DNA from: Brevinematales bacterium
Lineage (GTDB): Bacteria > Spirochaetota > Brevinematia > Brevinematales > JAOACQ01
Reading direction: 5' to 3'
DNA: 62,951 nt
NCBI GenBank assembly: GCA_020052515.1
Contig: JAGVOW010000107.1
Coordinates: 1-62,951, forward strand
The stretch's first letter is position 1, and the number at the start of each line of letters is the position of its first letter. Made by a program: the position numbers and the translations under genes. The notes under the pieces are model-generated. The model was not told where the DNA came from. It saw only the letters and a list, made by a program, of their open reading frames with translations, and made no database searches. This document shows positions 48,970-62,256 of the stretch, one piece after another.

Positions 48970-49575
48970 CTACCCCAGCAGGATATTCGCCATAATATCA
49001 ACTTGCCTCTCCAATTTATCTTTTGTGCCATTGTTAAACAAAATAAAATCCGCTTTTTTATGAATAAATTTCAATTCATTCTGGACATTCAGGATATTCT
49101 CAGCCTTACTCTTCGGCCATCCCCGCTTCTTCATAATCCGTTTTCTATTATCCGCTTCAGACGCTTCTACTCTGACAACCAGATCACACAAACAGTCTAA
49201 TTTTATTTCATAAAGAAGCGCGGCGTCTATTACGATATGATTTTTAGAAAAGCATTCCAGAAAGGAGAGAATTTCTTTTTTCATCTCAGGGTGCAAGATT
49301 TTGTTCAACTGAAAACGCTTTTGCCGATCATAAAAAACAATATTGCCTAACGCCTTTCTATTTATGCTGCCATCCTGATTTAAAATCGATTTCCCAAATG
49401 CGCGAGCCACTTCTTTTCTTTTGGAAACCATAGCCAGATGGCCAAACCGGTCCACATCAATGTGAACAAAGCCATATTTTTCAGAAAGTATTTTCGATGC
49501 TTTGGACTTACCGCTTCCAGTCTTTCCGACTATTCCGACAATCCATCGTTCATTTTTTTTCTTTTTTTGAACCAC
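48970..49575 (-). CDS. coaE: dephospho-CoA kinase CoaE
   Basis: A 201-residue P-loop kinase that phosphorylates the 3'-OH of dephospho-CoA in the last step of CoA synthesis. It has GIVGKTGSGKSKAS (P-loop), the DVDRFGH segment, VIDAALLYEIKL and RIMKKRGW. The exact start is uncertain: GTG 49575, after a GGGG-containing leader, is preferred. An in-frame start at 49605 would overlap the cysteine-rich gene further. It appears to be the last gene of the V-ATPase transcript. Confidence 0.9.
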   Translation of the reverse strand: MVQKKKKNERWIVGIVGKTGSGKSKASKILSEKYGFVHIDVDRFGHLAMVSKRKEVARAFGKSILNQDGSINRKALGNIVFYDRQKRFQLNKILHPEMKKEILSFLECFSKNHIVIDAALLYEIKLDCLCDLVVRVEASEADNRKRIMKKRGWPKSKAENILNVQNELKFIHKKADFILFNNGTKDKLERQVDIMANILLG

Positions 49576-49951
49576 GCTTGTCCCCGCAAAATTCTTCCTT
49601 AACAATCTTTTTTATCTGCTTAAATTTCTTATTCCCATAAGAGCATTCAAGAATTTTTTTTACTACATCATTCCTATGAACTAGAACGCAATCGCTGCAA
49701 TCCCAGACCTTCCTGCCGTCTGCGGAAAGCAGCCACTTCCCGGTCCCAACTCTATTCTTGCATGGATAAAAAGGGCAGTAACAAAAAAAACAGTTTAAAC
49801 CTTTTTGTTCTTCTTCGCCAGCATTGAAAGGAATTTTATGACATGGATAAAAGGAACAATCCTGAAATGAAAAATGAGAATTGGCAAAATCTAATTGCTT
49901 TTCAAAATAATTGAGGTTAAAGTCTTTATCCCGGACATGTTTTTTTTTCAT
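49550..49951 (-). CDS. cysteine-rich small-domain protein
   Basis: A 133-residue protein with paired Cys motifs: CSFYPCHK, CFFCYCPFYPCKN, and a WDCSDCVLVH segment, a pattern that fits the metal-binding 'cysteine-rich small domain' family (PF04071). Eight or more Cys are spaced for zinc or iron binding. It overlaps the stop of V-ATPase subunit I by ATGA and overlaps coaE at its 3' end, so it is firmly embedded in the operon. The function of the family is unknown. A His residue follows two of the clusters (CHK, VLVHR). Confidence 0.75.
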   Translation of the reverse strand: MKKKHVRDKDFNLNYFEKQLDFANSHFSFQDCSFYPCHKIPFNAGEEEQKGLNCFFCYCPFYPCKNRVGTGKWLLSADGRKVWDCSDCVLVHRNDVVKKILECSYGNKKFKQIKKIVKEEFCGDKRGSKKEKK

Positions 49952-51900
49952 AAAGCGTTTTCTTTATTAATCCCCACTCCCTCAAAAGCCCTGCCGTTCG
50001 CACGGAAAAATTTAACAAAGAATTCATAATACTCAAGCCTCAGAGCTTGAATGCCCACAATAAATCCTTCCACACCAATCACAAAAATATTGCCGATTAA
50101 AATCGCGATCCATTGAGTAATGGGATCCTTCATTCCACTGGCAATCAAGAACACAACACTCATCAAAGCTCCATGATTCAAGGCAAAAGCGCCTACCCTC
50201 ATAAAAGAAACCGTGTTACTCAGAAAAGAAATAACTGCCTCAAAAAGTTCCACAAAACCCAGGACTGGATTTACCGGTTCGGCATGCTCGCCATGCTGAG
50301 GAAAGAGAAGCCCTTCAAGCATTTTTTCCAGGGCTATCAAAATCCCCGCTCCAACCGGAATCCACCAGATAAAAGAGGGGACACTTACATTGTTGATAAT
50401 CCCATACGCTCCATATAAAAGGCTCCAGTAAAACGCCAATCCCGCAAGGCCGTTTGGCGAGAAGAACAGCCTTCCATAATTTCTTTCCAGAATACTATTA
50501 ATAATGCTCAGCAATATACCTATAGAAATCATGGCCGCCCCGAAAGCCACCGCGATCATAAGAATATCCATAATATGGTGCGCCGGGCTCATCCAGAGAG
50601 GCTTGAAAATTTCTTCTTTTCCAAAAATTTCCCCGTACAAAAATCCAAAAAGCACAGAAGATAATCCTATATAAAATATAACAGCCGCCAGCGAATGCAT
50701 CGGCTTCATCTTTTTAATAGACAAAATTAAAAGCCCCAGCAACGCGAGCACAATGCCATGCCCAACATCACCAAACATCGCCCCATACATCAGCACATAA
50801 GCTATCGCCGCAAAAGGAGTAGGGTCAATTTCCCGGTAATTAGGCATTCCAAAAGTTCCCACTAAAGCCTCAAATGGCTTGAGAAACCAGGGGTTAGAAA
50901 ACTTTGTAGGAGGCACCAATCCCTCCTTTTCCATGACCACAGAAGCCTTTTCATTCATGAAAACACAACGGTTTTCGGTTATTTTTTCTACAACACGCTT
51001 CAGTTTAGTAATGGAAGCAGAAGGCACCCATCCGGAGAGAAGCATAATTTTCTGAGTGGAAGCCATTTCTCCTTTAAGATTAGACATAGAAATATGATAC
51101 AAAACGCTTTTCTTCATTTTTCCCATAATAGAAACCGTTTTGTGTTTCGTTTTTTGAAAATTCCTTTCCTGCCAGATTTCTTCATCCTGCGCGGCTGAAA
51201 GATCAAAAGCATAGGCCACCAATTTAGATTTGGCATTTTTTTCGAGATCATAGGATATTCCATATTCCCGATAAAAAACGCTTTTCAAGATATTATCCAT
51301 TTTATCTTTCATGGACCGGGGAAGGGCAAAAAAAACTAAAGCATCATCGCCAATATCTCCCAGATGATGCACTTCGCTGGGAAGAGTAGATAAAGCCGTT
51401 AAAAATCCATCGTAACTGTTTAATGGAACCGTACCGAAACCGGTATAAAAATACCGAAGATCTTTAAATTTGGATAAATCCAGGTTCATATTAGAAAAAT
51501 AATTAATCTGACGGATTTTAATCTCTATTTGAATTTTTCTGAGTTTAAGAGTTTCCGCCTGTTGATTGTATTGATTGATCTCCGTCTCAATCTCTTTAAC
51601 AGACTGCTCAATCTGATCCGCGTTTAAAATATCTTCCTCTCCCTCTGAACTTTCGCTCAAAAATTTCGGGAAGAAATTTTCAAAATAAGTCAGTAAAAAA
51701 TTAATCCGTCTGTCATACTCCACATATTTGGAAAGCTCTGCTTCACAGAAAGTTTTATTCAACAGACAGTCTTTTAATTTATCCGGCCCTATCTCAATCA
51801 TCTCAAAATCGCCAAACTTCACCACTTCTTTGGACACAGCTTCTACTTCGTTTTTCAGGATGACAAGATCGGCCTTTTGCATTCTCTCTGGAAAAAACAT
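49948..51900 (-). CDS. ntpI: V-type ATPase subunit I (a-type stator)
   Basis: A 650-residue stator subunit: a soluble N-terminal domain (about 1-330) with coiled coils that contacts the peripheral stalks, then a membrane domain with seven to eight helices. The essential ion-channel Arg is in SFMRVGAFALNHGAL. GAMFGDVGHG, YGEIFGKEE and GVEGFIVGIQALRLEYYEFF are also conserved. It forms the half-channels at the rotor ring. It is separated from subunit C by a 34-bp palindrome and has a GAGAGAG ribosome-binding site. Confidence 0.95.
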   Translation of the reverse strand: MFFPERMQKADLVILKNEVEAVSKEVVKFGDFEMIEIGPDKLKDCLLNKTFCEAELSKYVEYDRRINFLLTYFENFFPKFLSESSEGEEDILNADQIEQSVKEIETEINQYNQQAETLKLRKIQIEIKIRQINYFSNMNLDLSKFKDLRYFYTGFGTVPLNSYDGFLTALSTLPSEVHHLGDIGDDALVFFALPRSMKDKMDNILKSVFYREYGISYDLEKNAKSKLVAYAFDLSAAQDEEIWQERNFQKTKHKTVSIMGKMKKSVLYHISMSNLKGEMASTQKIMLLSGWVPSASITKLKRVVEKITENRCVFMNEKASVVMEKEGLVPPTKFSNPWFLKPFEALVGTFGMPNYREIDPTPFAAIAYVLMYGAMFGDVGHGIVLALLGLLILSIKKMKPMHSLAAVIFYIGLSSVLFGFLYGEIFGKEEIFKPLWMSPAHHIMDILMIAVAFGAAMISIGILLSIINSILERNYGRLFFSPNGLAGLAFYWSLLYGAYGIINNVSVPSFIWWIPVGAGILIALEKMLEGLLFPQHGEHAEPVNPVLGFVELFEAVISFLSNTVSFMRVGAFALNHGALMSVVFLIASGMKDPITQWIAILIGNIFVIGVEGFIVGIQALRLEYYEFFVKFFRANGRAFEGVGINKENAL

Positions 51901-51915
51901 AACAAACTCTCTCTT

Positions 51916-51949
51916 ATACTAAATACAATCAATTGATTGTATTTAGTAT
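51916..51949. repeat. 34-bp perfect palindrome between V-ATPase C and I genes
   Basis: The half-site ATACTAAATACAATCAA is followed at once by its exact complement, with no loop. It begins at the last base of the subunit C stop codon and ends 15 nt before the subunit I ATG on the transcribed strand. No U-run follows, so it is not a standard terminator. As RNA it would form a long AT-rich hairpin; as DNA it could be a protein-binding site. Confidence 0.9.
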
Positions 51950-52953
51950 TATGACATTACCAGCATTTTCATGAGCTTTTCATTTTCCACTTTCATCCTT
52001 TTACTTTCCATTAAAAGAACCAGGTTCTTGACATTGATGTTATGCAAAACAACAAAGCTCAACAACACGCCCACACTAAACGGAGAGCCCCCCAAATGTT
52101 TTCTGGCTCTCTTTGCCAGATGAAACCCTACTTCTTTTTCAAGAGAAAAATCTCCTTCCGCCTTTTCTTTCTCCAGAAAACCATGCTCCCTCAGGAGATT
52201 AACAAAAGCCTCTTCACTCTCCGCTCCCAACAACTCTTCATACAGGTTCTTTGAAAGGACTTTTAATATATTGGGCAGCATAGCGGCTGTCTCTTCTCTC
52301 TGCAACTGGTAATAAAACTTCGCCCGGTAAATCCACAAAATACGATTCATCTCCAGAAAATAAAACAATACTCCCTTCACATCTTTGCTATCCGCGGGCA
52401 GAAGAGAGGACATCTTTTTCTTTAATCTTCTGGCATAATAATTATCAAGGCTCATTTCAAAATAGAAGGAATCTTTTTCTTCTTTTAATCTGGGAAAGGA
52501 ATCAAGCGCCAGCCTGTAATACGGCGTTCCACTCAGAAAATCCTGAAGCTCATCCAGAGTTTTCACATCTTTTACCAGGCTCAACTGGATTTTATTAAAA
52601 TCGCCCAGCCGGTACAAGAAATCCACCGGCTTCCCATTTATAATAGAACGTGTCAAAATCTTTAAATTCTCAATTTCATAAACCCTGGACCATTCTTCCA
52701 TAAAATCCTTAGTGCTTCCAGTCAAAAAACGCCTGCCGCTCTGAATAAAATAGTACCCTTCCTGTTTCAAAAGGCCTTCTAATTGAACCACATCGTCCGT
52801 CTGTAACTCTATTTTCCTAACCCGCGTTCGAAGAAACGCAATAAATTCCTGTAAACTCATCCTTACTAATTCTTCCAGTTCCTCTTTCCTTAAAAGAGTC
52901 GCCAGCCATGACTTCACCTTCGCATAAATCGCAGCGTATTCTTCACCCAGCAT
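51949..52953 (-). CDS. ntpC: V-type ATPase subunit C (d-type)
   Basis: A 334-residue subunit that sits on the rotor ring and couples it to the central stalk. It is helical throughout and starts with YAAIYAKVKSWLATLLRKEELEELV. It has the family pattern FNKIQLSLVK...LDELQDFLSGTPYY and a C-terminal KNLVLLMESKRMKV. GAGG 7 nt before ATG 52953 decides the start; an earlier in-frame ATG would overlap the G/H gene. Confidence 0.88.
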   Translation of the reverse strand: MLGEEYAAIYAKVKSWLATLLRKEELEELVRMSLQEFIAFLRTRVRKIELQTDDVVQLEGLLKQEGYYFIQSGRRFLTGSTKDFMEEWSRVYEIENLKILTRSIINGKPVDFLYRLGDFNKIQLSLVKDVKTLDELQDFLSGTPYYRLALDSFPRLKEEKDSFYFEMSLDNYYARRLKKKMSSLLPADSKDVKGVLFYFLEMNRILWIYRAKFYYQLQREETAAMLPNILKVLSKNLYEELLGAESEEAFVNLLREHGFLEKEKAEGDFSLEKEVGFHLAKRARKHLGGSPFSVGVLLSFVVLHNINVKNLVLLMESKRMKVENEKLMKMLVMS

Positions 52954-52972
52954 AAAGACCTCTTCCTCTGTT

Positions 52973-53284
52973 CTACTCGCCAACAATAGAATTGATAATT
53001 TGCTTCTTGATTTCAGTTTTCGCGGCTTCTAATTTTTCCTTTTTATTTTGAATATCTCTCTTTAACTCCTCACACAATTTTTCTTCCTGCTTTTTCGCAT
53101 TCAAGAGAACAGAGCTATTTTTTTGCTCTTTCTCCTGAGAAAACTTGGCCTCAAACTCTTTTTCCACCAAAGCCGCTTTCTGCTTTGCTGAATCCAAAAC
53201 AGCACGAGCTTTGTTCTGAGATTCCAGGGTTTCCTGATTCAAGCTTTCTTCCGCTTTCAGAATGGAAGCAATCAATTCTTTCAT
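52973..53284 (-). CDS. V-type ATPase peripheral-stalk subunit G/H-like coiled coil
   Basis: A 103-residue, highly charged coiled-coil protein (Lys, Glu, Ala, Gln rich) with no catalytic motif. Size, position and heptad pattern match the NtpG/AhaH subunit that pairs with subunit E in the peripheral stalk. Sequence identity in this family is always low, so assignment rests mainly on context. It lies between the Usp-like gene (2-nt gap) and subunit C. Confidence 0.75.
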   Translation of the reverse strand: MKELIASILKAEESLNQETLESQNKARAVLDSAKQKAALVEKEFEAKFSQEKEQKNSSVLLNAKKQEEKLCEELKRDIQNKKEKLEAAKTEIKKQIINSIVGE

Positions 53285-53286
53285 AA

Positions 53287-53733
53287 TTATTCTCCGATCA
53301 CTATGGTATCCTGTTTCCCAAAAAGAAGGATTTTTCTCTCAACCGTAGACAATATATCCTTCATGCAATCTCCGCCGCTTTTTTTCGCGATGCAGACCAG
53401 CTTTTCAGAAGCAACATCTTGTTCAATATAATCCCTGAGCTCGGTAAAAGGGTCGCCTTCCAGCAATTCGCAGTCGACTTCGACTCCTTCTTTTTCTCCT
53501 TCTTTCCTCGCGTAACTTAGATACTTCTCTCCATTACTCTTCAGACTTTCCATAAATTCCCGGGATTCTTCTTCTACAAAAACCTTGTATCTCTCTAACT
53601 TATTAATAGAATCCTTATCAACAACATAAACAGCCGAAACTGTCCTATCCAACCGTTTTGCTAAAGAGATACCTTTAGATAAAGCTCTTTTCCACTCAGG
53701 CGAACCTGTTATAGGGACATAAATCTTTTCCAT
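53287..53733 (-). CDS. universal stress protein (UspA-like)
   Basis: A 148-residue alpha/beta protein of the Usp family: an N-terminal strand (EKIYVPITGSPEWKRALSKGISLAKRL), a central VSAVYVVD strand and a C-terminal TVERKILLFGKQDTIVIGE. The typical ATP motif GxxGxxxxxxxxGS(V) is degenerate (KSGGDCMKD...STVERKIL), so nucleotide binding is uncertain. It is inserted inside the V-ATPase operon between subunits D and G/H, with GGGAGG before the ATG. A regulatory or assembly role for the ATPase is inferred from position only. Confidence 0.82.
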   Translation of the reverse strand: MEKIYVPITGSPEWKRALSKGISLAKRLDRTVSAVYVVDKDSINKLERYKVFVEEESREFMESLKSNGEKYLSYARKEGEKEGVEVDCELLEGDPFTELRDYIEQDVASEKLVCIAKKSGGDCMKDILSTVERKILLFGKQDTIVIGE

Positions 53734-53745
53734 ACTCCGGCCTCC

Positions 53746-54378
53746 CTAAGCTTTCTCATGGGCGTTTTTAACCCGCTTCATCTGGAAAAAAGTTTCTCTT
53801 TCTCTCTCTTCCAATGTTTCCTGTATAAACTTTATAATTTCCTTAAAATCGGGAATGAAAATGTTTTCCAGGGCATTTACCCTTCTCTGCGTTTTTTTAA
53901 TTTCATAGCTTAGCCGCCATGCAGAAGCCTCTATCTGCGAAACCGCAACAATAAGCTCCATAATCTCTTTCATATTCTTTTGAAGCTGATCAAAATGAAA
54001 AGTTGTAGAAGAAAAAGAAACGCCTGGTTTACCTGATCTTTTCAGCTCTTCTTTATACTTTATATCTGGAATATTCACTCCCATTATACTCTTTTCATGG
54101 ACTTCCACTTCATTAATGTCCCGGTGAGATTTAACAATCTTCTGCAGTTCAAATTCTCCCATTTCCAGCTGGGAAAGGCTAAGAAGCTCAAAGCTTTCTT
54201 TCAAAAGTATGTTCAATTTACTTCTTTGCTCTTTTATTTTAGAAATAATCTCCATCAAATGCATGACAAGCACTTCTCTTTTTTCTTCCAACAGGGCATG
54301 GCCATCGATAGAAAAAGACAATTGCCCCTTGTAGTCAAAAAGATTTGTCTTGGTAGGCGCTATTTCCGAAGGATTCAT
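53746..54378 (-). CDS. ntpD: V-type ATPase subunit D (central rotor shaft)
   Basis: A 210-residue coiled-coil shaft protein of the rotor. The N-terminal region IAPTKTNLFDYKGQLSFSIDG departs slightly from the usual xxPTKxxLxxLKxxL, and the C-terminal TQRRVNALENIFIPDFKEIIKFIQETLEERERE is strongly conserved. CAGGAG precedes the ATG. It follows the 28-bp palindrome after subunit B and so may be on a differently processed mRNA segment. Confidence 0.93.
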   Translation of the reverse strand: MNPSEIAPTKTNLFDYKGQLSFSIDGHALLEEKREVLVMHLMEIISKIKEQRSKLNILLKESFELLSLSQLEMGEFELQKIVKSHRDINEVEVHEKSIMGVNIPDIKYKEELKRSGKPGVSFSSTTFHFDQLQKNMKEIMELIVAVSQIEASAWRLSYEIKKTQRRVNALENIFIPDFKEIIKFIQETLEERERETFFQMKRVKNAHEKA

Positions 54379-54437: not shown

Positions 54438-55847
54438 CTACTTCTCTTCTTCTTTTTCTTTTTCACCAGTATAATACTTCTGTATTTCTTCTTCCTTAAG
54501 TCCTGACAATTCCGTTTTAGGAAGAAGAGAAACCAGCTTCCAGCCTAACGCCAGACTGTCTTCCATAGATCTGTCCTCATGAAAATCCTGTCCCACAAAG
54601 TTTCTTTCATACTCATTCCCAAACTTGAGGTAAGCCTTGTCCACCTTGCCCAGCTCTTCTTCTCCTACTATAGAAGCAATCGAACGAACTTCCTTCACCC
54701 TGGCGTAGCTCGCGTAAAGCTGCATAAAAAGATGCGGATGGTCATCACGAGTGTAGCCTTTACCAATACTATCCTTCATCAATCGGGACAAAGAAGGCAG
54801 AATATCAATCGGCGGATAGATGCCTTTTCCATTGAGCTCACGGGAAAGCACAATCTGCCCCTCGGTAATATACCCTGTCAGGTCAGGAACCGGGTGAGTA
54901 ATATCATCATTGGGCATACTGAGGATCGGTACCTGAGTAATCGTCCCTGCCCTGCCCTTTACTCTTCCCGCCCTTTCATAAATAGTAGAAAGATCACTGT
55001 ACATATAGCCGGGAAAACCTTTTCTCGCCGGCACTTCACCGCGGGCGTTCGCGATTTCTCTTAAAGCCTCACAGTAACTGGTCATATCCGTCAAAATCAC
55101 CAGCACATGCTTGCCCTTTTCATAAGCCAGATACTCCGCTGTAGTCAAAGCCACACGTGGAGTAATAATCCTTTCAATAGAAGGATCATCAGCCAGATTG
55201 AGAAACATGACCACATTTTTCAATGCACCTGTTTCTTCAAAATTATTAATAAAGAAAAACGCATCATCATGCTTGATACCCATTGCCGCAAATACCACCG
55301 CGAAATTACCGCCTTCTTCGCCGGGCAACTTTGCCTGCGCCGCGATCTGAGCGGCCAATTCATTATGAGGAAGTCCTGCCGCGGAAAATATAGGCAGCTT
55401 CTGCCCGCGCACCAGCGTGTTCATTAAATCAATAGCAGAAACACCTGTTTCAATGTACTCACGAGGGTACTCCCGCATTACAGGATTCAGCGGTTCTCCA
55501 TTGATATTCTTTTTAGTTTCTGGAATGATTTCTCCCAGGCCGTCGATGGGTCTGCCCAGGCCATTAAAAACCCGGCCCAGAAGATTTTCAGACAAACCAA
55601 CTTCTAGAGGTTTACCCGTAAAAAGCACCCGGGCTTTCTTCGGATTTACCCCGCTTGTCCCTTCAAAAAGCTGAACAACAACGGCATCATCGGAAGTTTC
55701 TAAAACCTTCCCATGCCGCTCGCTGCCATCCGGAAGCCTGATTTCCACCAATTCATCGTAACCAATCCCCTTGATCCCTTCCACAACAGCAAGCGGGCCA
55801 TTGATTCCCGCTATACCAACATGTTCCTTACTCATTTCCACAGGCAT
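54438..55847 (-). CDS. ntpB: V-type ATPase subunit B (non-catalytic)
   Basis: A 469-residue regulatory subunit that alternates with subunit A in the A3B3 head. [26 protein letters not shown] takes the place of a P-loop. The Arg finger region is in [26 protein letters not shown], and [13 protein letters not shown] is present. Its length is normal. The start is supported by GGAGAGATGCT. It follows subunit A by 34 nt. Confidence 0.97.
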
Positions 55848-55881: not shown

Positions 55882-57657
55882 CTATTCTTTGTAAACTTTT
55901 TCTAAAGCCGCAAACTCCTGCCCCATAAATGCCTCTACTTCATCAATCATCTGAAGTTTATCATTGGGCACGGTCATTTTTATCCGAATAATCTTTGTGA
56001 TCACTTCCATTTCTTTGATTTCAAAAATAGGAGCGCCCAGACGAATCACCTCTGCCGCCTTCTCAAAAAATTTCAGGATCAATTTGAGAATACGAAGCTG
56101 CTTTTCCGGCGTGGAATAGGTATCAATGTCGTCATAAGCGCCCTGCTGAAGGAAACCCAGTTTGATAATCCTGGCTGTTTCCAGATAAAGCCTCTCGCTG
56201 TCAGGTAACGCATCGGGGCCAATGAGTTTGACAATCTTCTGCAACTTATCTTCTTTCTGCAAGATTTCAAAAGAGCGCGATCGGATATCTTTATATTCCT
56301 TTGACACGTTCTTATCCCACCACTCTCTACATTCATCGCCATATTGGCTATAACTTCTCATCCAATTGATAGAAGGGTAATGCCGGCTGCTCGCCAGCGT
56401 CTTGTCCAACTCCCAGAAACACCGTACAAAACGCTTGGTGTTCTGTGTTACCGGTTCAGAGAAATCTCCTCCTGGAGGAGATACCGCGCCGATAGCGGTA
56501 ATAGATCCAACCTTGCCGGATTTTGTTTTCACATACCCTGCCCTTTCATAGAAAGCCGCAAGTTTTGACCCCAGGTATGCGGGGAACCCTTCTTCCGCCG
56601 GCATTTCTTCCAATCTTCCGGAAAGTTCACGTAAAGCCTCTGCCCAACGGGAAGAGGAATCTGCCATCAATGCCACATCATAGCCCATATCCCGATAATA
56701 TTCGGCTAATGTAATTCCTGTATAAATAGAAGCTTCTCTCGCCGTCACCGGCATGTTAGAAGTATTCGCGATCAACACTGTTCTTTCCATGAGAGGTTTT
56801 CCAGTCCTTGGATCAATCAGTTTTGGAAAATCTTCCAGCACCTCGGTGATCTCATTCCCTCTCTCACCGCATCCAATGTAGACAACCACCTGCGCATCTG
56901 CCCATTTCGCTAATTGGTGTTGAGTAATAGTTTTTCCCGTACCGAATCCGCCAGGAATTGCGGCTGTACCGCCTTTCGCGATCGGAAAAAAAACGTCCAC
57001 TACTCTCTGCCCTGTCAGCAGAGGAATAGAAGGCTTCATCCTTTCGAGAATAGGCCTGGGAAATTTTACAGGCCAGCGGTGATAAAGCTTTACTTGTATT
57101 TCTTCATCTTTATCATTTTTAATCACCGCCACACTATCTTCAATCGTAACTTCGCTCTCAGGAACAATTTTCACTACCGTTCCTCTGGTGTTCGGTTCTA
57201 ATATTATCTTGTGATTAATCAGACTGGTTTCCTGCACGCTTCCTACAATAGCGCCACCCTCCAGCTTTTGTCCAACAGAAACACTGGGTTTAAAAATCCA
57301 CTTTTTCTCCCGGGAAAGAGAAGGTACATTGACTCCACGAGTAATATAAATCCCGCTTTTCTTAGCGATTTCTTCCAATGGCCTTTGAATTCCATCAAAT
57401 ACATTACCGATGATTCCAGGCCCTAATTCCACGGAAAGCGGCAGGCCGGTTCCGTAAATAGGATCTCCCGGTTTTATGCCGGTCGTGTCCTCGTATACCT
57501 GAATGGTAGCAAACTCATCCTGGATACTGAGGACTTCTCCTATCAAGTGGTATTCAGAAACCTCCACCAGCTCCATCATTTTGGGCATTTCTGAAATCAA
57601 CGCTTTGATGATAGGCCCGTTTACCTTCATAATCTTGCCGATTGTCTTATTATCCAT
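55882..57657 (-). CDS. ntpA: V-type ATPase catalytic subunit A
   Basis: A 591-residue catalytic subunit with the P-loop [11 protein letters not shown] (usual form GPFGSGKT). It carries the A-specific insertion of about 90 residues (region around 115-205; [15 protein letters not shown] and [12 protein letters not shown]), [19 protein letters not shown] with the catalytic Glu, and [30 protein letters not shown]. Gly in place of Pro and Thr in place of Ser in the P-loop are minor variants. The enzyme may work as a synthase or a pump; the sequence does not say which. Confidence 0.97.
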
Positions 57658-57706: not shown

Positions 57707-58402
57707 TTATCTTATTTCTCTAATAATACCAATAGGGGTCTGTTCTCTGCTTTGTCCCAGGGGATTGTCCCTTAAAATCCCTAAAATATCCCTTTCATCT
57801 ATTGTTTTATGGGATTTACCTAATATTTTACCGCCCAGGTCATTCAAATCGACTATCGCTACCGGCGCACCAATAACAGCTGAAATTTCCCGCGCTGTTT
57901 CATCCGGGCAAGCAGGACCCAAAACCACATAAGAGTTATAAGGCGGCAGCGTATTCTGCGTCGGCCCGTCGATAGAAGAAGCTTTCGTACCGGCAATACG
58001 GTAAAAATCACCTTTCCGTCCAAAAAGCTTTGTCACAAAGCTCACCGCGGCCGCAAACAAAATCCGCACCACCCCGCATTCCCGAAGGGCCATTTCCATC
58101 GTCTCAGGAATACCCAGGCCTATACCAGCGGACGTCTTTGTTACATACTTTGAAAGAAAAACCGCTAAAGGCCTTGCTTTAATATCCTTTACCGGAAAAG
58201 CCCTTCCCTGTGTAATCGCCACTGCCTTCTCGCTGATAAAAACCAGATCACCTTTGTTCAAGAGATTTAACACAAACTTTTTCGTTACTTCGGTGATTTT
58301 ATCATCTTTTGTTATAACATCCGTTTTTATTGGAATTCTTAAATACCTTTTACCCTGATATTCTATTTCCAATTTTTTTTCTTTTTTCAAATCGCCATTC
58401 AC
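57707..58402 (-). CDS. CofE-like (F420-0:gamma-glutamyl ligase family) protein in the V-ATPase operon
   Basis: A 231-residue protein of the PF01996 family named after coenzyme F420-0:gamma-glutamyl ligase CofE. Recognisable parts: a LNKGDLVFISEKAVAITQGR strand-loop, SAGIGLGIPETMEMALRECG, the IDGPTQNTLPPYNSYVVLGP segment and IGAPVAIVDLNDLGGKILG. True CofE belongs to F420-producing archaea and actinobacteria and has a longer second domain in bacteria. No other F420 gene is present here. The GTG start overlaps the subunit E stop by GTGA, so it is translated within the ATPase operon. A different glutamyl- or amino-acid-ligase function is possible; its role beside the ATPase is unknown. Confidence 0.82.
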   Translation of the reverse strand: MNGDLKKEKKLEIEYQGKRYLRIPIKTDVITKDDKITEVTKKFVLNLLNKGDLVFISEKAVAITQGRAFPVKDIKARPLAVFLSKYVTKTSAGIGLGIPETMEMALRECGVVRILFAAAVSFVTKLFGRKGDFYRIAGTKASSIDGPTQNTLPPYNSYVVLGPACPDETAREISAVIGAPVAIVDLNDLGGKILGKSHKTIDERDILGILRDNPLGQSREQTPIGIIREIR

Positions 58403-58977
58403 AAAAACATTCCTGCCGCGAGCTTAATCAACTCCGGCCTCATTTTGTTATAGATATTCTCCAAAGAACTATCAATATAAATATCTTTCGAGGAGCAAAT
58501 TACCCCGCCGTCAATTTTCGAAGACGGCAGAAGTTTTAACCCCGCTTTAACGTCCGATTTTATCTGATCAAAATAGACTTCATCTTCCTTATTAAAAGAA
58601 ACTCCCATTTCGCTGCCTTCAATCAAAGGAACAGACTGCTGAACAATACGAAGTAAAAACCGGCGATATTTCGCGCTATCTTTTTTAAGATTTTGAAGAA
58701 GTTCCTGGTAAGCCTCTTTGAGCAAAGAGTCTAACATTTCCAATTCTAAACGCTGTCTTTCCCGGTAAGCATCCAATTCCGATTTTGCCAGAAGCTTGGC
58801 AGAAAGCCTTTTCAATTCTACTTCTAAACCAGTTTTCTTTTTTTCGTAAACCCGGTTAATTTCTTCCAATCTTTCCAGAAGCATCTTTTCAGCCGCAGCA
58901 TTCGCCTGTTTAATCGCCTCTGTATTTTCGGTTTCAGTTTCTTTTTGAATATGGCTTAAAATTTCCTGCAACCCCAT
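58399..58977 (-). CDS. ntpE: V-type ATPase subunit E (peripheral stalk)
   Basis: A 192-residue protein: a long N-terminal coiled coil (about 1-95, rich in Glu, Lys, Ala) and a C-terminal globular domain with GGVICSSKDIYIDSSLENIYNKMRPEL, the diagnostic pattern of NtpE/AtpE. It pairs with the G/H subunit to hold subunit I to the A3B3 head. It overlaps the CofE-like start by 4 nt. Confidence 0.93.
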   Translation of the reverse strand: MGLQEILSHIQKETETENTEAIKQANAAAEKMLLERLEEINRVYEKKKTGLEVELKRLSAKLLAKSELDAYRERQRLELEMLDSLLKEAYQELLQNLKKDSAKYRRFLLRIVQQSVPLIEGSEMGVSFNKEDEVYFDQIKSDVKAGLKLLPSSKIDGGVICSSKDIYIDSSLENIYNKMRPELIKLAAGMFL

Positions 58978-58997: not shown

Positions 58998-59303
58998 CTA
59001 AATTCGGATACCAACCGCTTCCCGAATATAATCCGCCAGGCTTTTGCCTTTTTGAACATGCCCAGCCCCACCGGGAATATCAACAACCAATGGAAGGTCT
59101 TTAGAAAAACGCAGATGGCTGATAAAATCGCTTGCCCACTCTTCCACTTCTTCTGTCACAATTAACAGGCCGTAGGCTTTAGATTTTTTGATCCTTTTGA
59201 GTTCATCAACAGCGCTCTCGCTGTCTTCTACGATCTTTCCCTCAACTCCTTCCAGAGCAAACAAAAGAACGCTGTCTCTATCGCCTACAACAATTGTTTT
59301 CAT
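58998..59303 (-). CDS. ntpF: V-type ATPase subunit F (central stalk)
   Basis: A 101-residue alpha/beta protein that binds subunit D and regulates rotation. It has the typical N-terminal IVVGDRDSVLLFALEGVEG, a central YGLLIVTEEVEEW and a LVVDIPGG strand. The gene is 4 nt after subunit K. The upstream ribosome-binding site is weak, which suggests translational coupling. Confidence 0.93.
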   Translation of the reverse strand: MKTIVVGDRDSVLLFALEGVEGKIVEDSESAVDELKRIKKSKAYGLLIVTEEVEEWASDFISHLRFSKDLPLVVDIPGGAGHVQKGKSLADYIREAVGIRI

Positions 59304-59307
59304 ATTA

Positions 59308-59745
59308 TTATTTGTTTAATACCATAATAGCTATAACCAACCCGTAAATGGCAATACCTTCCGCTAGCCCCACAAAGACTATAGCATTACCAAACATTTT
59401 TGGATTTTCAGAAATAGCGCCAATAGCTGCAGCGGCAGCCATACCCACAGCAATACCCGCTCCAATAGAACCAAGCCCGACAGCTATTCCCGCTGCTATT
59501 AATCCAAATCCAGCAGAACCGGAAGATGGAGCTTTCACTTCCTGCACTTCCGCTGTTTTTTCCTGAGAATAAACCTTATTCACAGATAAAGCAATAAATC
59601 CAGCCGACAATACAAAAACAGCAAGCAACCCGGCGATAATCAAAGAAGACTTTTTAAAAGCGTTGCCTTTCTTTACCATCAACCATACCAACCCTGTCAT
59701 TGCCGTTATTATAACCAGCAAAAAAAGCACTGAAATCATTATCAT
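59308..59745 (-). CDS. ntpK: V-type ATPase proteolipid subunit K (rotor ring)
   Basis: A 145-residue membrane protein with four hydrophobic helices. The last two (about 75-142) form a Gly/Ala-rich c-ring hairpin (AAGIAVGLGSIGAGIAVGMAA, then GNAIVFVGLAEGIAIYGLVIAIM) with the ion-binding Glu in GLAEG. The first two helices (about 3-22 and 31-52) lack such a motif and a second carboxylate, so one ion site per four helices is expected. GGGAGG before ATG 59745 fixes the start; an upstream extension of 44 codons has no such support. It is the first gene of the operon. Confidence 0.93.
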   Translation of the reverse strand: MIMISVLFLLVIITAMTGLVWLMVKKGNAFKKSSLIIAGLLAVFVLSAGFIALSVNKVYSQEKTAEVQEVKAPSSGSAGFGLIAAGIAVGLGSIGAGIAVGMAAAAAIGAISENPKMFGNAIVFVGLAEGIAIYGLVIAIMVLNK

Positions 59746-59821
59746 ATATGCCTCCCTCTTAATCAATCTCATTAAACTTGAAAAACAAAAGCCGCCCTTA
59801 TTTAACAACACATTTTCATAA

Positions 59822-59850
59822 ATTATAAAACCTTTTTTATAGAATAGCAA
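59822..59850 (-). promoter_or_regulatory. promoter of the V-ATPase operon
   Basis: On the minus strand TTGCTA, 17-nt spacer, TATAAT, giving a leader of about 70 nt before subunit K. Confidence 0.65.
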
Positions 59851-59862
59851 TAGTTTTTTCGT

Positions 59863-59891
59863 TTGACAATAAAACAATTTTAGAATATAAT
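59863..59891 (+). promoter_or_regulatory. promoter of the GGDEF gene
   Basis: Perfect TTGACA, 17-nt spacer, perfect TATAAT, about 26 nt before the ATG. Confidence 0.85.
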
Positions 59892-59916: not shown

Positions 59917-62256
59917 ATGGGGAAAGGGGCATTATCAAAAGACCGGCGTTTGACTATTGGCTTGTTTGTTTCAGAGCTGGAGGGGGAATACTCTAGCGCC
60001 ATTTGTTCGGGGGTTGAAGATACCGCGAAAGAAAATGACGCTAATCTATTTATTTTCCCCGGAAAAACCATGCGTGCGCCCTATCAGTACCAATATCAAT
60101 ATAATATTATCTATGATTTTGTTCATAAAAACAGCCTGGATGCTTTGATTTTGGCTTCAGGAACACTCTGCAATTTTTTATCTGAAAAAGAGTTTCACGA
60201 TTTCTACAGTCATTTTTCACCCATCCCGATGGTTAGTATTTCGATTAAACTAAAAGACATTCCCAGCGTTCTAATTGACAACAAACTGGGATTTAAACAG
60301 GCTATTTCACATCTTATTACAAAACATCAAAAGAAAAAAATAGCCTTTATCAGAGGGCCGGAAAGCAACATTGAAGCCGAAGAACGTTATCAAACATTCC
60401 TGGAAGCCCTTCAAGAGAATGGATTGCCTTTGGATCCGGCTTTGGTTGTAAACGGTGATTTCACGGTTTATTCCGGCATCAAAGCGGTAGAAATTCTTCT
60501 CGAAAAAAGAAAGGTTCATTTTGATGCCATCGTGGCGGCAAATGACGAAATGGCTATCAGCGCATTAAACGAACTGGCCGCGAGAAATTACAAAATTCCA
60601 AAAGATATTGCGGTTATCGGTTTTGACAATGTCGAAGGCGCAAAATTCAGTAATCCGCCTCTCACAACAGTCCGCCAACCGATTTATAAACAAGCTCAGA
60701 AAGCTTGCGAGACAGCGTTAAAAATGATTGCCGGAAAAAAAGTCCCAAAAGTTACTATGCTGGAAACGGAATTGATCCGGCGCTCTTCATGCGGGTGCTT
60801 TGTCCCTTCGCTGAACTCCTCTCTCCCGGAGGAAAGCAATGAAATTGCTCAAAAAAATTCAAAAGATGGCCTTGCGCAGACAAACACAAAAATTCATGAA
60901 ATACTTAAGGAATTTGAAGGATTTGCCCCGCGGAGAGAAAAAATAGGCCGCTGGATCCGTGAAATTTTTGAAGCTTTCCACCACGAAGAAGACATCCAGA
61001 GAAAGTCAAAAGAATTCTTAGAAAAGTTCAAAAAAATCTTAGGGGAAGATTCTCTTAAAAGCGACGATGTCGTGGATCTGCAAAATATTTTTTCTCTCAT
61101 AAGAGAGCATTTTCTACACCTTTTCAAAAATTTTCCTAACAGCGACAGGAAAGTATTTTTAATCGAGATATTTCTTCAGAAGGCCCGCATTATTGTAGAA
61201 GAACTTTTTCAGCAGGAAAACTCTAAACGCCTGGCCCATTTTTATCAGGATATACGAACTCTACGACAAACACTGAGTTCGCTTGTATCCAATGTTTACT
61301 TGAAAGTTGAAAATCTAAGCTACATTATTAATGAGCTTTTAAACATAGGAATTAAATCTAGTTACATCTTCCTCTATCCCAGGGAAATCATACACAACAC
61401 AACAGAAAAGTGGAAAAAGCCTAAGCATTTAGAGCCAATAATGATTTACAACGAAAATGGCGCGGCGCGCGTTAGCCCGAGAAGAAACGCCATTCTTACA
61501 GAAGAACTTTTAAGCAATCCGTACTTACCAAAAAACAGACGGTGGACATTAACCCTCAACCCCCTCTTCTTTATGGAAGAGCAATTCGGCATTATACTCT
61601 GCGAATTGGACCTCCGAAACAGCTACAATTATGAAACCCTCTCGCTTCAAATTAGCTGTGTTTTAAAAATATCATCTCTGATCCGGGCCCGTGAAAAAGC
61701 TGAGCATAAATTGAAAGATGCTCTGAAAGAATTAGAGGTTTACAATCAAAAATTGAACAACCTTTCCCAAACAGATGAATTAACTGGCCTATATAATAGA
61801 AGAGGCTTTATTACTCTTGCGAAGCAAAACCTGATTTTATCAAAGCGGACCAACAAAAATGGGATTTTGTTTTACGCCGACCTGGATGGGTTGAAGCGTA
61901 TTAATGACAATTATGGGCATGATGAGGGGGATTTTGCTATACAGTCAGCCGCCAACATACTAAAAAACACTTTCCGCAATATGGACATTCTGGCCAGAAT
62001 GGGCGGAGATGAATTCACTGTCCTGGCAATAGACACTAACCCCGAATTTATCGATATTTTTAAAACCCGCTTCGATAAAAATATCCAGAATTACAATCAA
62101 ATCATTGAGAAGCCTTATAAAATTTCTGTCAGCATTGGATGGATTTCTTTTTCGAGCAGAGAGATTGAATCATTAGAAAAACTTTTGGCGGAAGCTGACA
62201 ACTGTTTATATGAGCAAAAAAAACACCGCGAGGCAAGAAAAAGTGAAAAATCCTGA
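59917..62256 (+). CDS. cytoplasmic sugar-sensor-like diguanylate cyclase (PBP1-GGDEF)
   Basis: A 779-residue soluble protein. Residues about 10-290 are a LacI/GalR-type periplasmic-binding-protein fold without the HTH (VAANDEMAISALNEL, IAVIGFDNVEGAKFSNPPLTTVRQP), ending in SSCGCF. A helical and GAF-like middle (about 300-600) leads to a coiled coil and a GGDEF domain (about 620-775). The catalytic GGDEF motif (696-700) is intact. An RxxD inhibitory site (RNMD, 687-690) sits exactly five residues before it, so an active, product-inhibited c-di-GMP synthase is predicted. The absence of signal peptide and membrane helix places sensing in the cytoplasm. AAGGGCGG precedes the ATG. The ligand is unknown. 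Confidence 0.88.
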   Translation: MGKGALSKDRRLTIGLFVSELEGEYSSAICSGVEDTAKENDANLFIFPGKTMRAPYQYQYQYNIIYDFVHKNSLDALILASGTLCNFLSEKEFHDFYSHFSPIPMVSISIKLKDIPSVLIDNKLGFKQAISHLITKHQKKKIAFIRGPESNIEAEERYQTFLEALQENGLPLDPALVVNGDFTVYSGIKAVEILLEKRKVHFDAIVAANDEMAISALNELAARNYKIPKDIAVIGFDNVEGAKFSNPPLTTVRQPIYKQAQKACETALKMIAGKKVPKVTMLETELIRRSSCGCFVPSLNSSLPEESNEIAQKNSKDGLAQTNTKIHEILKEFEGFAPRREKIGRWIREIFEAFHHEEDIQRKSKEFLEKFKKILGEDSLKSDDVVDLQNIFSLIREHFLHLFKNFPNSDRKVFLIEIFLQKARIIVEELFQQENSKRLAHFYQDIRTLRQTLSSLVSNVYLKVENLSYIINELLNIGIKSSYIFLYPREIIHNTTEKWKKPKHLEPIMIYNENGAARVSPRRNAILTEELLSNPYLPKNRRWTLTLNPLFFMEEQFGIILCELDLRNSYNYETLSLQISCVLKISSLIRAREKAEHKLKDALKELEVYNQKLNNLSQTDELTGLYNRRGFITLAKQNLILSKRTNKNGILFYADLDGLKRINDNYGHDEGDFAIQSAANILKNTFRNMDILARMGGDEFTVLAIDTNPEFIDIFKTRFDKNIQNYNQIIEKPYKISVSIGWISFSSREIESLEKLLAEADNCLYEQKKHREARKSEKS

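What the first reader, a model, noticed from the sequence alone, without database searches (positions are those of the whole stretch)
57707..58402. CofE-like protein encoded between V-ATPase subunits E and A
The GTGA overlap with subunit E makes it a true operon member. In chlamydial and spirochaetal V-ATPase operons this slot holds a DUF2764 gene; here it holds an F420-ligase-fold protein, while a canonical subunit C is present downstream. No F420 pathway is visible. It may modify a subunit, for example by glutamylation, or sense a metabolite and control the pump.
Basis: partly seen in the sequence, partly recalled or inferred. Interest (0 to 1): 0.6.

Follow-up and report, generated by a model that had tools for sequence, protein, structure and literature searches.

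The report
Orphan CofE-fold gene in V-ATPase operon
A gene lodged inside a spirochaete's ion-pump (V-ATPase) operon encodes a divergent relative of a cofactor-building enzyme, but the same protein is found in many other bacteria far from any V-ATPase, so it is probably a general metabolic enzyme sharing the pump's transcript rather than a pump part.

Summary
Window 57707-58402 (-) is an intact 231-aa gene whose GTG start overlaps the subunit E stop, and it lies between V-ATPase subunits E and A. It has the CofE fold: PF01996 is above cut-off, and a pLDDT 90.5 model matches only CofE in the PDB. The genome lacks CofD and has no other PF01996 gene.

The protein belongs to a conserved, divergent CofE-fold family (57 residues invariant in 48 sequences) found in Clostridia, Oscillospiraceae, Erysipelothrix and Microbacteriaceae. 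None of the 78 non-Brevinematales loci shows V-ATPase genes nearby, and some of those genomes have no V-ATPase. In Clostridia gene and V-ATPase do not co-occur beyond chance (16/22 versus 163/269, p=0.36). In Brevinematales the gene is in the operon in two of four families; the other two run E straight into A. Several residues fixed in F420 ligases are replaced or missing. A Microbacterium genome carries this gene and a true F420 ligase side by side.

Best reading: an uncharacterised small-molecule enzyme, probably nucleotide-dependent, lodged in the operon in one lineage. A pump-specific role is not excluded but has no support beyond position.

The parts
57707..58402 (-). CofE-fold orphan enzyme gene, 231 aa, GTG start overlapping the stop of subunit E
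   Evidence: ORF and overlap; PF01996 36.6 bits; AF2 model and Foldseek match to CofE only; same slot in four other Brevinematales
58399..58977 (-). V-ATPase subunit E gene, directly upstream
   Evidence: NCBIfam PRK02292 1.2e-09; PF01991 22.5 bits, just under the cut-off of 24.2
58998..59303 (-). V-ATPase subunit F gene
   Evidence: PF01990 1.8e-15
59308..59877 (-). V-ATPase subunit K gene (ORF as listed; the true start may lie further in)
   Evidence: PF00137 5.6e-18
55882..57657 (-). V-ATPase subunit A gene, directly downstream
   Evidence: Pfam and NCBIfam
54438..55847 (-). V-ATPase subunit B gene
   Evidence: Pfam and NCBIfam
53746..54378 (-). V-ATPase subunit D gene
   Evidence: PF01813 3.2e-52
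53287..53733 (-). Universal stress protein gene inside the operon, kept in all Brevinematales operons compared
   Evidence: PF00582; comparison
52973..53284 (-). Small ORF in the position of a G/H-like stalk subunit
   Evidence: ORF only, no Pfam match
51949..52986 (-). V-ATPase subunit C gene
   Evidence: PF01992 1.2e-43
49948..51900 (-). V-ATPase subunit I gene
   Evidence: PF01496 2.2e-36

Best explanation
The gene encodes a member of an uncharacterised, strongly conserved CofE-fold enzyme family that is not the F420 ligase. I infer that it acts on a small metabolite: most likely a nucleotide- and metal-dependent reaction that activates a carboxylate, or binds a phosphorylated ligand, in a pocket at the dimer interface as in CofE, with an altered active site. 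Its work does not require a V-ATPase. In the Brevinematales it became lodged between subunits E and A of the V-ATPase operon, probably once. It is now co-transcribed and translationally coupled there, kept in two families and lost from or never present in two others. Shown: fold (predicted model), conservation, slot, distribution, altered CofE signature, coexistence with a true FbiB in one genome. Inferred: enzymatic activity, small-molecule substrate, single insertion, independence from the pump.
For: Fold: AF2 model pLDDT 90.5 and pTM 0.87; the only significant PDB matches are CofE structures 2PHN, 2G9I and 7ULD, E 5e-9 to 6.5e-8, TM 0.55-0.61. Family: 57 invariant columns in 48 sequences from three phyla, many polar or charged (D51, E57, Q64, R66, E99, E102, E107, K124, D144, D184, N186, D187, D211, N212, Q216, R227), as expected of an active site. 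Outside V-ATPase context: none of 78 non-Brevinematales loci has a V-ATPase subunit in the DNA held, up to 10 kb each side; neighbours are unrelated to one another (murB, a Mur ligase, sigA, ComEC, methionine gamma-lyase, MBOAT, VanW). No co-occurrence with V-ATPase in Clostridia: 16/22 genomes with the gene and 163/269 without it have a V-ATPase, Fisher p=0.36. Not the F420 ligase: genome G410 has a full FbiB/CofE (197.9 bits) and this gene (24.9 bits) at another site; own genome lacks CofD. Lineage-specific slot: present in f1 and f2, absent from f3 and f4 operons where E abuts or overlaps A. The same operon in G009 has an unrelated insert between A and B.
Against: The slot is kept in two well-diverged families with tight spacing (overlaps or gaps up to 49 bp), which may mean selection for co-expression with the pump. 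The protein is more conserved across these families than subunits C, D, E or I: 64-70% identity versus 26-58%. No reaction or substrate is shown for any member. The tree places the window protein with Clostridia rather than with the other Brevinematales, although one clade is not rejected (AU p=0.20), so the single-insertion history is unproven.
Confidence: 0.66

Rival explanations
1. V-ATPase accessory factor: it adds glutamate to a subunit or controls the pump.
For: Position between E and A with translational coupling, kept in two Brevinematales families. Amide-forming fold.
Against: The family occurs without V-ATPase neighbours in many phyla, and in genomes without a V-ATPase. Chance-level co-occurrence. 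Orthologous operons in f3 and f4 do without it. CofE signature residues changed.
Confidence: 0.1
2. A CofE-fold protein that has lost catalysis and binds a metabolite or nucleotide as a sensor or carrier.
For: CofE D109 is K or R in the family, K45 is lost, and the C-terminal block is missing.
Against: 57 invariant residues including many acids, Q64, Q216, N186 and N212 look like a working active site. D109's role in CofE could not be checked in a paper held here.
Confidence: 0.15
3. A FolC2-type folate polyglutamate ligase, as CT611 in Chlamydia.
For: COG1478/CofE homologues can replace FolC: CT611 complements an E. coli folC mutant (PMC1971073).
Against: This genome has a FolC over its cut-off (271.9 bits against 162.65). 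No folate genes adjacent.
Confidence: 0.06
4. F420-0:L-glutamate ligase, as the Pfam name says.
For: PF01996 match and CofE fold.
Against: 14.5 bits against the CofE equivalog cut-off of 180.65; no CofD in the genome; F420-contacting R234 region absent; coexists with true FbiB in G410.
Confidence: 0.03

Closest known systems
CofE / FbiB N-terminal domain (coenzyme F420-0:L-glutamate ligase; PDB 2PHN, 7ULD)
   Same: Same fold (Foldseek E 5e-9, TM about 0.6); D34, R49, A106-G107, L120, P122 and R219 kept in the merged alignment.
   Different: 231 aa against 249; only 21 of 56 conserved CofE positions kept and 9 deleted; K45, E47, D109, N112 replaced; C-terminal block and F420-contacting R234 absent; family-specific GIGLGIPETMEMALRECG motif.
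FolC2 (Chlamydia trachomatis CT611, COG1478)
   Same: A CofE-family protein outside any F420 pathway (PMC1971073).
   Different: CT611 sits with folate genes and replaces a missing folC; here FolC is present and no folate genes are adjacent.
QimC of Streptococcus pyogenes (PMC13059722)
   Same: A CofE homologue used outside F420 metabolism, in a wall-glycan operon.
   Different: QimC is reported to superpose on 2PHN at 0.97 A RMSD, so it is much closer to canonical CofE; its activity is not established.
DUF2764 (PF10962) in spirochaetal V-ATPase operons
   Same: Occupies the same slot just upstream of subunit A (L120, L121).
   Different: A different Pfam family; found with the other V-ATPase type, whose A subunit is about 43% identical to the window's.

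Membership tests
PF01996 CofE-fold superfamily | Profile match over the curated cut-off | tested here: met
   36.6 bits against 25, residues 24-176
PF01996 CofE-fold superfamily | CofE fold | tested here: met
   Only CofE structures match the predicted model significantly
CofE/FbiB F420-0:glutamate ligase | Equivalog score over the cut-off | tested here: not met
   TIGR01916 14.5 bits against 180.65; NF009809 12.3 against 274
CofE/FbiB F420-0:glutamate ligase | Residues conserved in CofE/FbiB (K45, E47, D109, N112, C-terminal block) | tested here: not met
   I62, Q64, K139, S142 and deletion; 21 of 56 positions kept
CofE/FbiB F420-0:glutamate ligase | F420 pathway in the genome | tested here: not met
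   CofD (TIGR01819) absent from a 99.6% complete genome; CofC, CofG and CofH not searched
FolC2 folate ligase | FolC missing in the genome | tested here: not met
   FolC 271.9 bits against 162.65 on contig C14
FolC2 folate ligase | Complements a folC mutant | not testable with these tools
   needs an experiment
V-ATPase accessory protein | Encoded in the operon of the lineage's relatives | tested here: inconclusive
   Present in f1 and f2, absent from f3 and f4
V-ATPase accessory protein | Family occurs only with, or preferentially with, V-ATPase | tested here: not met
   Absent from flanks in 78 loci; 8 of 30 genomes lack V-ATPase A over the cut-off; Fisher p=0.36 in Clostridia
V-ATPase accessory protein | Physical association with, or modification of, the pump | not testable with these tools
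   needs purification and mass spectrometry

The most novel reading that the evidence does not exclude
A widespread orphan CofE-fold enzyme with a new amide-ligase or carboxylate-activating chemistry was recruited in Brevinematales to modify or control the V-ATPase, giving covalent or metabolite-dependent regulation of a bacterial V-ATPase by this fold.
Probability: 0.08. Interest if true: 0.7.

Novelty: new variant of a known kind. Interest (0 to 1): 0.3.

Why it matters
Annotation based on PF01996 alone would label such proteins 'F420-0 glutamate ligase', which this analysis contradicts: the family lacks the signature residues and can coexist with a true FbiB. It is a conserved protein family of unknown reaction in at least three phyla, so finding its substrate would correct many annotations. 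The V-ATPase link, if it proved functional, would be a new kind of pump control, but the present evidence favours operon hitch-hiking.

Tried and rejected
F420 ligase: rejected on the equivalog score, signature residues, missing CofD and coexistence with FbiB. FolC2: made unlikely because FolC is present. Pump dependence: tested by neighbourhood, whole-genome presence and co-occurrence, not supported. A functional theme from neighbours was looked for and not found: there are scattered cell-wall genes (murB in Lutispora-type Clostridia, a Mur ligase in one Erysipelothrix, VanW, MBOAT), but the lists are mixed, and murB-rapZ-yvcK is from my own knowledge a common block of its own. Sequence search of PDB chains with the family profile found nothing useful; only the fold search did. 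Independent acquisitions of the gene by f1 and f2 were considered because the window protein groups with Clostridia (95/93), but one Brevinematales clade is not rejected. Literature searches for a V-ATPase and F420-ligase link returned no paper. The original CofE structure paper and the FbiB paper are not in the library, so which CofE residues bind metal or GTP could not be checked in text.

Full report
OBSERVATION. The gene is real. ORF 57707-58402 on the minus strand encodes 231 aa; its GTG start overlaps the subunit E stop in GTGA. It scores 36.6 bits to PF01996 (cut-off 25), over residues 24-176 only, and far below the CofE equivalog (14.5 against 180.65). The operon on the minus strand runs K, F, E, this gene, A, B, D, a universal stress protein gene, a small ORF in the place of a stalk subunit, C and I. 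The genome is 99.6% complete and holds one V-ATPase A at the threshold used, one PF01996 protein, a FolC and no CofD.

WHERE IT IS FOUND. Named relatives of the window's genome are Brevinematales, Spirochaetota. In five genomes of two families (f1: window and G001; f2: G002, G005, G008) the gene sits in the same slot between E and A, at 64-70% identity to the window protein. In families f3 (G003, G009) and f4 (G004, G010, G012) the orthologous operon runs E directly into A, with no member of the family found anywhere in those genomes. The G009 operon carries another unrelated insert, a nucleotidyltransferase substrate-binding-like ORF (below the Pfam cut-off), between A and B, so this operon tolerates insertions. 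Across 393 Spirochaetota genomes only those five have the family, apart from one marginal partial match. Other spirochaetes have a longer PF01996 protein of about 390 aa elsewhere, and others again have DUF2764 in the slot.

Outside spirochaetes the family is common: 444 confirmed relatives among the candidate stretches in GTDB genomes, of which the best 80 were kept. They are from Clostridia, Oscillospiraceae, Erysipelothrix, Microbacteriaceae and one genome labelled Calditrichales. Of the 80 loci only the two Brevinematales ones have V-ATPase genes nearby; flanks are up to 10 kb but shorter where contigs end. Neighbours elsewhere are unrelated to one another. Of 30 genomes with the gene, 8 have no V-ATPase A over the curated cut-off, including four Microbacteriaceae. 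In 291 Clostridia genomes, 16 of 22 with the gene and 163 of 269 without it have a V-ATPase (Fisher p=0.36), and in those whose positions are listed gene and pump lie on different contigs. The genomes are not phylogenetically independent, so this test is only a rough guide.

WHAT IT IS. An alignment of 48 members has 57 invariant residues. The AF2 model from it (pLDDT 90.5, pTM 0.87) matches only CofE structures in the PDB (E down to 5e-9, TM about 0.6). I aligned it with AF2256 and 15 actinobacterial FbiB/CofE domains. Of 56 positions conserved in those enzymes, the window protein keeps 21 and lacks 9. K45 becomes I, E47 becomes an invariant Q, D109 becomes K or R, N112 becomes S or A, and the block 195-207 is absent. 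The alignment is at low identity (about 15%), so single-residue pairings near gaps are uncertain: for D150 one method pairs it with D184, another with D187. CofE contacts the F420 ring with R234 of the partner subunit (PMC10861534); the window protein ends before that position in the alignment. Genome G410 (the genome of locus L036, Microbacterium excoecariae) carries both a full CofE/FbiB and this protein, so they are distinct functions.

HISTORY. In a 36-sequence tree the window protein groups with Lutispora-type Clostridia (95/93) rather than with the other Brevinematales, but holding the five together is not rejected (AU p=0.20). The A-subunit tree keeps the Brevinematales operons together (88/89) without resolving f1, f2 and f3. 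One insertion followed by loss in f3 is the simplest reading; the direction of transfer between phyla is open.

MECHANISM. I think the protein is a small-molecule enzyme with the CofE architecture: a dimer with an interface pocket, nucleotide and metal, and probably carboxylate activation. This is inference from the fold and the conserved polar residues. Its active site differs enough to make the F420 reaction very unlikely, and the exact reaction is unknown. Co-transcription with the pump gives it expression, not necessarily a pump function. Precedents for CofE homologues outside F420 metabolism are CT611 of Chlamydia, which complements a folC mutant (PMC1971073), and QimC of S. pyogenes in a wall-glycan operon (PMC13059722).

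VERDICT. Observation confirmed. The proposal of pump modification or sensing is possible but has only position in its favour, and family distribution speaks against it. The finding is a lineage-specific operon placement of an uncharacterised protein family that PF01996-based annotation would mislabel.

Noticed in passing
53287-53733 (-): A universal stress protein (Usp) gene sits between V-ATPase subunit D and the small stalk-like ORF in every Brevinematales operon compared (f1 to f4), so it is a more constant non-subunit member than the CofE-like gene.
   Followed up: partly
48970-49951 (-): A Cys-rich small domain protein (PF04071, 49550-49951) and a CoaE-like kinase ORF (48970-49605) follow subunit I at the end of the V-ATPase operon, overlapping.
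   Followed up: no
59822-59891: A perfect sigma-70-type promoter match (TTGACA-17-TATAAT, 12/12, 59863-59891 +) lies back to back with a promoter-like site (59850-59822 -) that would serve the V-ATPase operon.
   Followed up: no
59917-62256 (+): A protein that appears to fuse a LacI-type sugar-binding domain with a GGDEF domain, divergent from the V-ATPase operon; it may link sugar sensing to c-di-GMP.
   Followed up: no
L179:7136-7534 (+): In the f3 genome G009 a nucleotidyltransferase substrate-binding-like ORF is inserted between V-ATPase subunits A and B.
   Followed up: partly
L169-L177: Other Spirochaetota (family f22 and others) carry a longer, about 390-aa PF01996 protein with a strong profile match; in G035 it is far from the V-ATPase A gene, and in G172 it is split into two pieces.
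   Followed up: partly
L015: The contig labelled Calditrichales bacterium MX18-03 has a Lutispora-like gene order around the gene and its protein groups with Clostridia, so its label may be wrong.
   Followed up: no
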